Source: Pseudomonadota bacterium (GTDB lineage Bacteria; Pseudomonadota; Gammaproteobacteria; Steroidobacterales; Steroidobacteraceae). From it: a stretch of 64,000 nucleotides of DNA. Location of the stretch: contig CANFSB010000004.1 of the NCBI GenBank assembly GCA_947449495.1, positions 1 through 64,000 on the forward strand. The letters are read 5' to 3'. The notes beneath the pieces are model-generated. The model searched no databases. It was not told where the DNA came from and saw nothing but the letters and a program-made list of their open reading frames with translations. Shown in pieces: positions 41,186 to 41,835 of the stretch. The position numbers were made by a program, and so were the translations under genes. Position 1 is the stretch's first letter, and every line of letters starts with the position of its first letter.

Positions 41186-41835
41186 GGGGGCGACCGGTTT
41201 CGACGTGGGTTGCGAAACTTCAGGGGCGTACCGAGGTGCATGGGTCCTCGTTAAACTTCTTTGCAAAACACAGTTGCCAACGACGACAACTACGCTCTGG
41301 CCGCTTAACCCGGCCTAACCTCCGACCCGCTGGTGCCTATGCCACGGAACCGGGGGACGCGCTCATAGGATCGCGCTGCACCGAGCTTCGGGGTGCAGCG
41401 TTAAGAGACACCGCGGCTGGCTAAGCATCTTCCCTGCTGCTCGGGTAGTGTAAGGCGAGAAAACAAAGAGACAGCTACGTACGTAGAGCCTGAAATGTAG
41501 GACTTGCGGACGGGGGTTCGATTAACGCGAAGGATCGCAAAGGTCGCCTTTGCCCGGAAGGGCAAAGTAAACACGGGGCTCATTCGGTGAACCCTCACGC
41601 CGCTGGCAACAGCGGCCTGGCAACGCCGAGGGGTGGAACGAGGCCAACTCGTTCTGCCCTGTAGAGACTCATAGACTGGCTGAACCGGGCAACCGGCAGA
41701 GCCGGCACTAGGATCTGCAGCGCAAGCTGCGGATAACACGCCCCGCATCCGACCCATCGCGTAAGCGATGAAGGATGAAGGCATAGTCCAGCCTGTCTCG
41801 AAAGAGATGGAACTGCTGTCCCCCCGCCTCCACCA
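41186..41835 (+). ncRNA. ssrA: tmRNA gene, interrupted by a group I intron in the T-loop
   Basis: 5' GGGGGCGACCGGTTTCGACG; tag GCC AAC GAC GAC AAC TAC GCT CTG GCC GCT TAA (41276-41308) = ANDDNYALAA; exon 1 ends ...GGACGGGGGTTCGAT, exon 2 TCCCCCCGCCTCCACCA (41819-41835). TATAGT -10-like at 41167-41172. Confidence 0.95.
41523..41818 (+). mobile_element. Group I intron (IC3-like) within ssrA; boundaries +/-1 nt
   Basis: TGGCAACGCCGAGG, GTAGAGACTCATAGACTGG (R/P7-like), GGATGAAGGCATAGTCCAG (S/P7-like); hairpins CTTTGCCC-GGAA-GGGCAAAG, CATCGC-GTAA-GCGATG, TCTC-GAAA-GAGA; 5' exon ends in U, intron ends in G; removal restores a 5-bp T-stem with a 7-nt loop TTCGATT. Confidence 0.9.

What the first reader, a model, noticed from the sequence alone, without database searches (positions are those of the whole stretch)
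41186..41835. tmRNA gene split in its T-loop by a ~296-nt ORF-less group I intron
Seen: a normal tmRNA 5' half and tag (ANDDNYALAA) run to GGACGGGGGTTCGAT, then about 296 nt of foreign sequence, then TCCCCCCGCCTCCACCA. Removing 41523-41818 exactly restores a 5-bp T-stem, a 7-nt T-loop and an acceptor arm pairing with GGGGGCG. The insert carries group I core motifs (GGCAACGCCGAG, GUAGAGACUCAUAGACU, GAUGAAGGCAUAGUCC), tetraloop hairpins, U before the 5' junction and terminal G. Known: these motifs resemble the Azoarcus tRNA-Ile IC3 intron, and group I introns in ssrA T-loops have been noted in some bacteria. Inference: functional tmRNA, and so ribosome rescue, depends on self-splicing here.
Basis: partly seen in the sequence, partly recalled or inferred. 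Interest (0 to 1): 0.9.

Follow-up and report, generated by a model that had tools for sequence, protein, structure and literature searches.

The report
Split tmRNA intron with outside endonuclease
The gene for a bacterial ribosome-rescue RNA is interrupted by a self-splicing intron, which is a known situation, but a gene for a DNA-cutting "homing" enzyme sits just outside it and keeps that company in many unrelated species, so the two look like cooperating mobile elements of a kind so far described mainly in phages.

Summary
In detail: 41523-41818 (296 nt) interrupts ssrA in the T-loop. Removing it gives a tmRNA called by ARAGORN, and a congener (G002) has an identical 337-nt 5' exon with exactly this site empty. 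The insert is a group I intron (covariation across 17 relatives), but it has P7.1/P7.2, so it is IA-like, not IC3. Such introns, at this loop position, are already known (883 unique sequences, PMC11915505).

Its homologues lie just 3' of ssrA in all 25 assessable genomes from many families. Twenty-three of these ssrA genes carry the intron, and all 14 open full-length copies are beside an interrupted ssrA. The two beside an uninterrupted ssrA are broken. Relatives show intron without endonuclease, and neither, so the parts are separable.

Best reading: a chromosomal "collaborative homing" pair. The enzyme cuts intronless ssrA near the T-loop, repair copies intron plus enzyme gene, and the intron protects the host gene. 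Arrangement and separability are shown; cleavage, splicing and homing are inferred. I found no earlier report of this arrangement at ssrA.

The parts
41186..41522 (+). ssrA (tmRNA) 5' exon, up to T-loop ...GGGGGTTCGAT
   Evidence: Rfam RF00023; ARAGORN on joined exons; 100% identical over 337 nt to intronless G002
41276..41308 (+). tmRNA tag reading frame ANDDNYALAA-stop
   Evidence: ARAGORN
41523..41818 (+). group I intron, 296 nt, IA-like; no endonuclease frame inside
   Evidence: RF00028 28.7 bits; 17-sequence alignment A1 with covariation; absent in G002
41543..41546 (+). internal guide sequence GUCG, pairs with exon CGAU (41519-41522) as P1 with U-G at the 5' splice site
   Evidence: paired in 17 of 17 relatives, invariant
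41574..41579 (+). P3 5' strand CGGGGC, pairs with 41740-41745 GCCCCG
   Evidence: 100% of cells paired, 3 of 6 pairs with double changes
41666..41669 (+). P7 5' strand GACU, pairs with 41785-41788 AGUC (pseudoknot with P3)
   Evidence: invariant in 17 of 17
41713..41734 (+). P7.2 hairpin; with P7.1 just before it, the mark of group IA
   Evidence: 8 of 9 P7.2 pairs with double changes; P7.1 4 of 6
41819..41835 (+). ssrA 3' exon: rest of T-loop and T-stem, acceptor strand, CCA
41880..42536 (+). second insert, 657 bp, absent from G002 and from contig C225 of G003; carries the endonuclease gene and a fragment of a GNAT gene
41908..41912 (+). ribosome-binding-like AGGAG, 6 nt before the endonuclease start codon
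   Evidence: sequence
41919..42380 (+). single-motif LAGLIDADG homing endonuclease gene (153 aa), 83 nt after the CCA end of ssrA
   Evidence: Pfam PF14528 and PF00961 above cut-off; I-MsoI profile match 4e-14; model pLDDT 93, Foldseek I-CreI/I-CvuI/I-MsoI TM about 0.7
37280..37804 (+). smpB, protein partner of tmRNA, intact
   Evidence: ORF; homologues named SsrA-binding protein

Best explanation
The locus holds two separable mobile parts at ssrA: a group IA-like self-splicing intron in the T-loop, and a free-standing LAGLIDADG endonuclease gene just downstream. The likely mechanism is collaborative homing. The enzyme, probably a homodimer like I-CreI, cuts intronless ssrA at or near the T-loop. 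Repair from an occupied copy then transfers the intron and, by co-conversion across the roughly 100 bp between them, the endonuclease gene. Once in place, the intron destroys the enzyme's site, so the host's own ssrA is safe, and splicing restores normal tmRNA. After fixation the enzyme gene decays and the intron stays. Shown: intron identity, precise empty sites, the arrangement, its recurrence, and separability. Inferred: splicing in vivo, cleavage site, co-conversion.
For: Intron. Empty sites: G002 lacks both inserts but keeps the 61 bp between them at 98%; contig C225 of MAG G003 has the intron end but no endonuclease, and is identical for 117 bases to contig C20, which forks into the endonuclease at that boundary. 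Recurrence: homologues lie just 3' of ssrA in 25 of 25 assessable genomes, 24 on the same strand, the open copies starting about 30-165 nt after CCA where measured. Co-occurrence in a class sample of 387 genomes: 15 both, 4 intron only, 2 endonuclease only, 366 neither, Fisher 1e-21; in the family 8, 20, 0, 189, 3e-8. Protection: 14 of 14 open full-length copies are beside an interrupted ssrA; the two beside an uninterrupted ssrA are broken. The motif DGEG is kept and the LAGLIDADG fold is predicted with high confidence. Transfer: between G000 and G003 the block ssrA-intron-endonuclease is 96.6% identical, while aligned flanks are about 76%. The spliced T-arm (GGACGSGGGTTCGATTCCCSCC) is the same in all 14 apart from one stem pair.
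Against: No cleavage or splicing data. The target site is inferred from position and co-occurrence only. The protection rule rests on just two intronless cases (Fisher p 0.18). Endonuclease and intron distances are only weakly correlated once ssrA divergence is allowed for (partial r 0.15, p 0.14), so long-term co-inheritance is not shown. Most genomes are draft or metagenome assemblies, and the G003 evidence comes from a metagenome bin. No sigma-70-type promoter was found for the endonuclease gene.
Confidence: 0.72

Rival explanations
1. An ordinary ORF-less group I intron in tmRNA, of the published kind; the downstream endonuclease gene is an unrelated neighbour or an independent free-standing element that targets some other site near ssrA.
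For: Many intron-bearing relatives have no endonuclease (20 of 28 in the family), so the intron persists alone. The intron kind is published.
Against: Every assessable homologue in 25 genomes across many families is next to ssrA, and 23 of those ssrA genes have the intron, against about 5% of sampled genomes in the class. Chance neighbourhood cannot give this.
Confidence: 0.15
2. The LAGLIDADG protein now acts as a maturase that helps the ssrA intron splice.
For: Some LAGLIDADG proteins are bifunctional endonuclease-maturases (PMC3073962); the gene is beside the intron it would serve.
Against: Intron-bearing genomes without it are common (G007, G184, G193 and most of the family). The same protein family accompanies two divergent intron subtypes. 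Catalytic motif residues are kept.
Confidence: 0.06
3. The endonuclease came in with a genomic island that uses the 3' end of ssrA as its attachment site.
For: ssrA is a well-known island site (PMC11915505); in G113 an endonuclease remnant beside ssrA is repeated 8.4 kb away.
Against: The window insert is 657 bp with no integrase, and its left edge is 44 bp past the CCA end, not within ssrA. The same short spacing recurs in the other genomes.
Confidence: 0.04
4. The site was first homed to by an endonuclease inside the intron; that gene was lost, and a later free-standing endonuclease replaced it (turnover, as proposed for phages in PMC10448857).
For: Some tmRNA introns elsewhere hold endonuclease genes in P7.1 or P9 (36 of 883). 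The same endonuclease family sits beside two intron subtypes, and the endonucleases of the second subtype do not form one clade (AU p 0.038).
Against: None of the introns examined here (250-315 nt) holds an internal endonuclease gene. This concerns origin, and is compatible with collaborative homing today.
Confidence: 0.2

Closest known systems
Intron-form tmRNA genes (Williams 2002; Nawrocki, Petrov and Williams 2025, PMC11915505)
   Same: Group I intron in the T-loop at position 7, -1U, terminal G, about 290 nt, reconstitutes the T-arm
   Different: That survey records endonuclease genes inside the intron (36 of 883); it does not describe an endonuclease gene outside the intron, just 3' of ssrA
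Collaborative homing in phages (F-CphI with the psbA intron of cyanophage S-PM2; [quoted passage not shown] PMC6083498, PMC3984707, PMC10448857)
   Same: ORF-less group I intron plus an adjacent free-standing endonuclease gene; intron expected to block self-cleavage
   Different: Here it is on bacterial chromosomes, in a non-coding RNA gene, with a LAGLIDADG enzyme, in many families of the class; cleavage not yet shown
I-CreI, I-CvuI and I-MsoI, single-motif homodimeric LAGLIDADG endonucleases
   Same: Fold (TM about 0.7), sequence profile (4e-14 to I-MsoI), single LAGLIDADG motif
   Different: About 20% identity; those are intron-encoded, this one lies outside the intron
Clostridium botulinum tmRNA intron
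   Same: Group I intron in tmRNA, 287 nt, stated as previously shown to self-splice (PMC2729099)
   Different: Other phylum; no outside endonuclease described in what I read

Membership tests
Group I intron | Conserved core P3-P8 with P3/P7 pseudoknot, supported by covariation | tested here: met
   50 of 91 pairs with double changes, score 0.391 vs 0.148 shuffled; P3 100% and P4 99% paired, P7 invariant
Group I intron | U-G pair at the 5' splice site in P1 and terminal G | tested here: met
   UG in 17 of 17; last base G in all
Group I intron | Rfam Intron_gpI gathering score (a detection cut-off, not a property of the molecule) | tested here: not met
   28.7 bits against 50. The other group I hit in this genome, in a tRNA-Leu-like gene, also falls short at 41.5; a limit of the model
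Group I intron | Guanosine-dependent self-splicing | not testable with these tools
   needs in vitro transcription or RNA-seq
   P7.1 and P7.2 both present with covariation
Subgroup IA | P7.1 and P7.2 extra hairpins between P7 and P3 | tested here: met
   exact IA subtype not determined
Intron-form tmRNA | Intron in the T-loop, removal gives a canonical tmRNA | tested here: met
   ARAGORN on joined exons; empty site in G002
LAGLIDADG homing endonuclease | LAGLIDADG motif and fold | tested here: met
   Pfam, AlphaFold pLDDT 93, Foldseek
LAGLIDADG homing endonuclease | Cuts a long specific DNA site | not testable with these tools
   no assay
Collaborative homing pair | ORF-less intron with endonuclease gene outside it, adjacent | tested here: met
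   25 of 25 assessable genomes adjacent to ssrA, 23 intron-bearing
Collaborative homing pair | Endonuclease target equals the intron insertion site | not testable with these tools
   only indirect: open copies beside interrupted ssrA 14 of 14; broken copies beside uninterrupted ssrA 2 of 2
Collaborative homing pair | Transfer of intron and endonuclease together | tested here: inconclusive
   96.6% block between about 76% flanks, G000 vs G003; distance correlation weak; a G003 contig has the intron alone

The most novel reading that the evidence does not exclude
A two-part selfish element specialised on tmRNA genes across many families of the class sampled here: a free-standing LAGLIDADG nuclease dedicated to the ssrA T-arm, working with whichever of two divergent group I introns fills the site. 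The intron acts as the host's protection, so that losing the intron while the nuclease is active would break the ribosome-rescue gene, a form of addiction. If the target is the T-arm DNA itself, this would be, as far as I found, the first collaborative homing system on bacterial chromosomes and the first at a non-coding RNA gene.
Probability: 0.4. Interest if true: 0.75.

Novelty: new variant of a known kind. Interest (0 to 1): 0.6.

Why it matters
The intron alone is a new member of a published group. The outside endonuclease matters because a survey that looks only inside introns counts most tmRNA introns as lacking an endonuclease gene; here many have one within about 30-165 nt past the gene end. 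It offers a chromosomal, many-lineage case of collaborative homing, with relatives in all the stages needed to study how it arises and decays: neither part, intron only, both, intron with dead endonuclease, and dead endonuclease only. It also gives a candidate site-specific nuclease for a highly conserved T-arm sequence.

Tried and rejected
IC3 assignment: rejected by P7.1/P7.2. RF00028 as the test: too weak here (28.7 bits), so I used covariation. Shifted splice junctions: one shift of +1 gives the same spliced RNA, but only the zero shift has both -1U and terminal G. Palindromic T-stem as a homodimer target: the dyad of the T-arm has an odd centre, so I make no claim about the exact cut site. 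Endonuclease in phages, plasmids and viral contigs: viral-contig scan found none, plasmids none, phages only distant LAGLIDADG proteins at 29-35% identity. A phylum sample of 299 genomes gave no further copies. Tight co-evolution of intron and endonuclease: not supported. Protection rule by Fisher test: not significant with two intronless cases. One intron pattern hit (G829) was a false positive.

Full report
WHAT IS THERE. The ssrA gene at 41186-41835 is interrupted after ...GGGGGTTCGAT (41522) by 296 nt, and resumes at TCCCCCCGCCTCCACCA. ARAGORN does not find the gene in the window but finds a 354-nt tmRNA with tag ANDDNYALAA once 41523-41818 are left out. Rfam gives tmRNA for 41193-41524 (5e-64) and group I intron for 41528-41810 (28.7 bits, E 1e-4, under the gathering score of 50). 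A DNA search of the genome finds one copy. A congener, G002, carries an identical 337-nt 5' exon and the empty site.

INTRON STRUCTURE. I aligned 17 such introns with their T-arm exons. A hand-drawn group I model (P1, P2, P3-P8, P9, with P7 as pseudoknot) has 87.7% of cells paired and 50 of 91 pairs with changes on both sides; the covariation score is 0.391, against 0.148 +/- 0.008 in shuffles and at most 0.143 for slid versions. RNAalifold, not told the model, finds 40 of 70 pairs compensated. Between P7 and P3 lie two covarying hairpins, P7.1 and P7.2. From established group I classification (own knowledge) that means IA, not IC3. Two subtypes are seen, about 45% apart, one like this window and one like G352. 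The published survey places most tmRNA introns at T-loop position 7, the site found here by my reading of its numbering, and counts 883 of them in 21 phyla, 36 with an endonuclease gene inside. A C. botulinum tmRNA intron is stated to have been shown to self-splice.

THE MISSED PART. Its profile matches I-MsoI (4e-14); the AlphaFold model (pLDDT 93) matches I-CreI, I-CvuI and I-MsoI with TM about 0.7. Relative to G002 it lies in a second, separate insert of 657 bp (41880-42536); the 61 bp between the two inserts is shared at 98%.

RECURRENCE. I searched relatives (100 genomes), a class sample (387), a phylum sample (299), the family (218) and three orders. In all, 26 genomes hold a homologue. 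One (G809) is at a contig edge and cannot be placed. The other 25 all lie just 3' of ssrA; 24 are on the ssrA strand and one (G921, truncated) is inverted. For 11 open copies the start codon is 31-164 nt after CCA. In 23 of the 25, ssrA is interrupted by the intron (G303 shown by the intron's 3' end at the contig start).

CO-OCCURRENCE. A T-loop/guide-sequence pattern finds the intron in 18 of 387 class genomes and 29 of 218 family genomes, of which G829 is false. Counting G303 as intron-bearing, 15 class genomes have both parts, 4 intron only, 2 endonuclease only, 366 neither (Fisher 1e-21); in the family the counts are 8, 20, 0 and 189 (3e-8). Two of the four 'intron only' class genomes hold weak endonuclease remnants (G268, G417). 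These tests treat genomes as independent, which related species are not, so the p-values overstate.

STATE OF THE ENDONUCLEASE. Fourteen genomes have an open, full-length copy with the DGEG motif, and every one is beside an interrupted ssrA. Broken copies occur beside interrupted ssrA (G018, G448, G294, G425, G157, G807 and others). The only two beside an uninterrupted ssrA (G182, G113) are broken, by a stop codon and by frameshifts. This fits a nuclease that would cut an unprotected ssrA, but two cases do not make a significant test (p 0.18).

SEPARABILITY AND TRANSFER. In the G003 bin, contig C20 has intron plus endonuclease and contig C225, starting inside the intron, has none; they are identical for 117 bases and fork at the left edge of the endonuclease insert. 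With G002 this gives three states at one site. Between G000 and G003 the stretch from ssrA to the endonuclease is 96.6% identical over 1167 bp, while the aligned sequence upstream is 75.6% and a short stretch downstream 76%, which points to recent transfer of the whole block. The bin is a metagenome assembly with some contigs much closer to the window, so I hold this as likely, not proven. Across 12 genomes, intron and endonuclease distances correlate weakly once ssrA distance is allowed for, and endonucleases of the second intron subtype do not form one clade (AU p 0.038, 5 changes; weakly supported tree). The partners therefore seem exchangeable.

MECHANISM. Collaborative homing was defined for F-CphI, whose gene adjoins an intron-bearing psbA; the enzyme cuts the intronless allele and is blocked by the intron. 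[quoted passage not shown] The eight papers in the library that use the term concern phages, organelles or general reviews, judged by titles, abstracts and the passages I read, and none of the tmRNA papers found by title and abstract describes an endonuclease gene outside the intron. The library lacks most subscription papers. The present locus has the arrangement, the recurrence and the separability. Cleavage site, splicing and homing remain to be tested.

LIMITS. Most genomes are drafts. The intron pattern finds only introns with the GGTCGC guide region, so intron counts are lower bounds.

Noticed in passing
L001 (G000:C6:57722-57912, minus strand): A second, smaller group I intron in the same genome, in the anticodon loop of a tRNA-Leu-like gene (41.5 bits); it seems to lack the extra P7 hairpins and so to be a different subgroup.
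   Followed up: partly
L124 (G003:C225:1-117) and L003 (contig C20, from 3027): Two contigs of one metagenome bin share 117 bases and fork exactly at the left edge of the endonuclease insert, as if two alleles coexist in the population.
   Followed up: partly
window 42343-42633 and 43349-43780, minus strand: A fragment of a GNAT acetyltransferase gene, mostly inside the endonuclease insert, duplicates part of the intact gene 1 kb away; it may mark where the insert's right end recombined.
   Followed up: partly
window 42643-43352: A FitA-like antitoxin and PIN-domain toxin pair just after the endonuclease insert; also present in G002, so older than the insert.
   Followed up: no
L065 (G184), L079 (G417); also L022 (G045): Introns of G184 and G417 have a palindromic CTCTCCCGCTTGCGGGAGAGGG element inserted in the P7.2 loop; the G045 intron is also long there.
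   Followed up: no
L060 and L063 (G113:C29, 8.4 kb apart): The endonuclease remnant that follows ssrA occurs twice, as expected for an island integrated at ssrA.
   Followed up: no
L127 (G921:C67, 723-1190): The endonuclease remnant beside ssrA is inverted and lacks its LAGLIDADG motif; a palindromic ATATCCTCATAATCGTGAGGATAT repeat lies at its broken end.
   Followed up: partly
G045:C68 and G045:C217: Two ssrA copies in one bin, one with the intron and one without; probably mixed strains.
   Followed up: no
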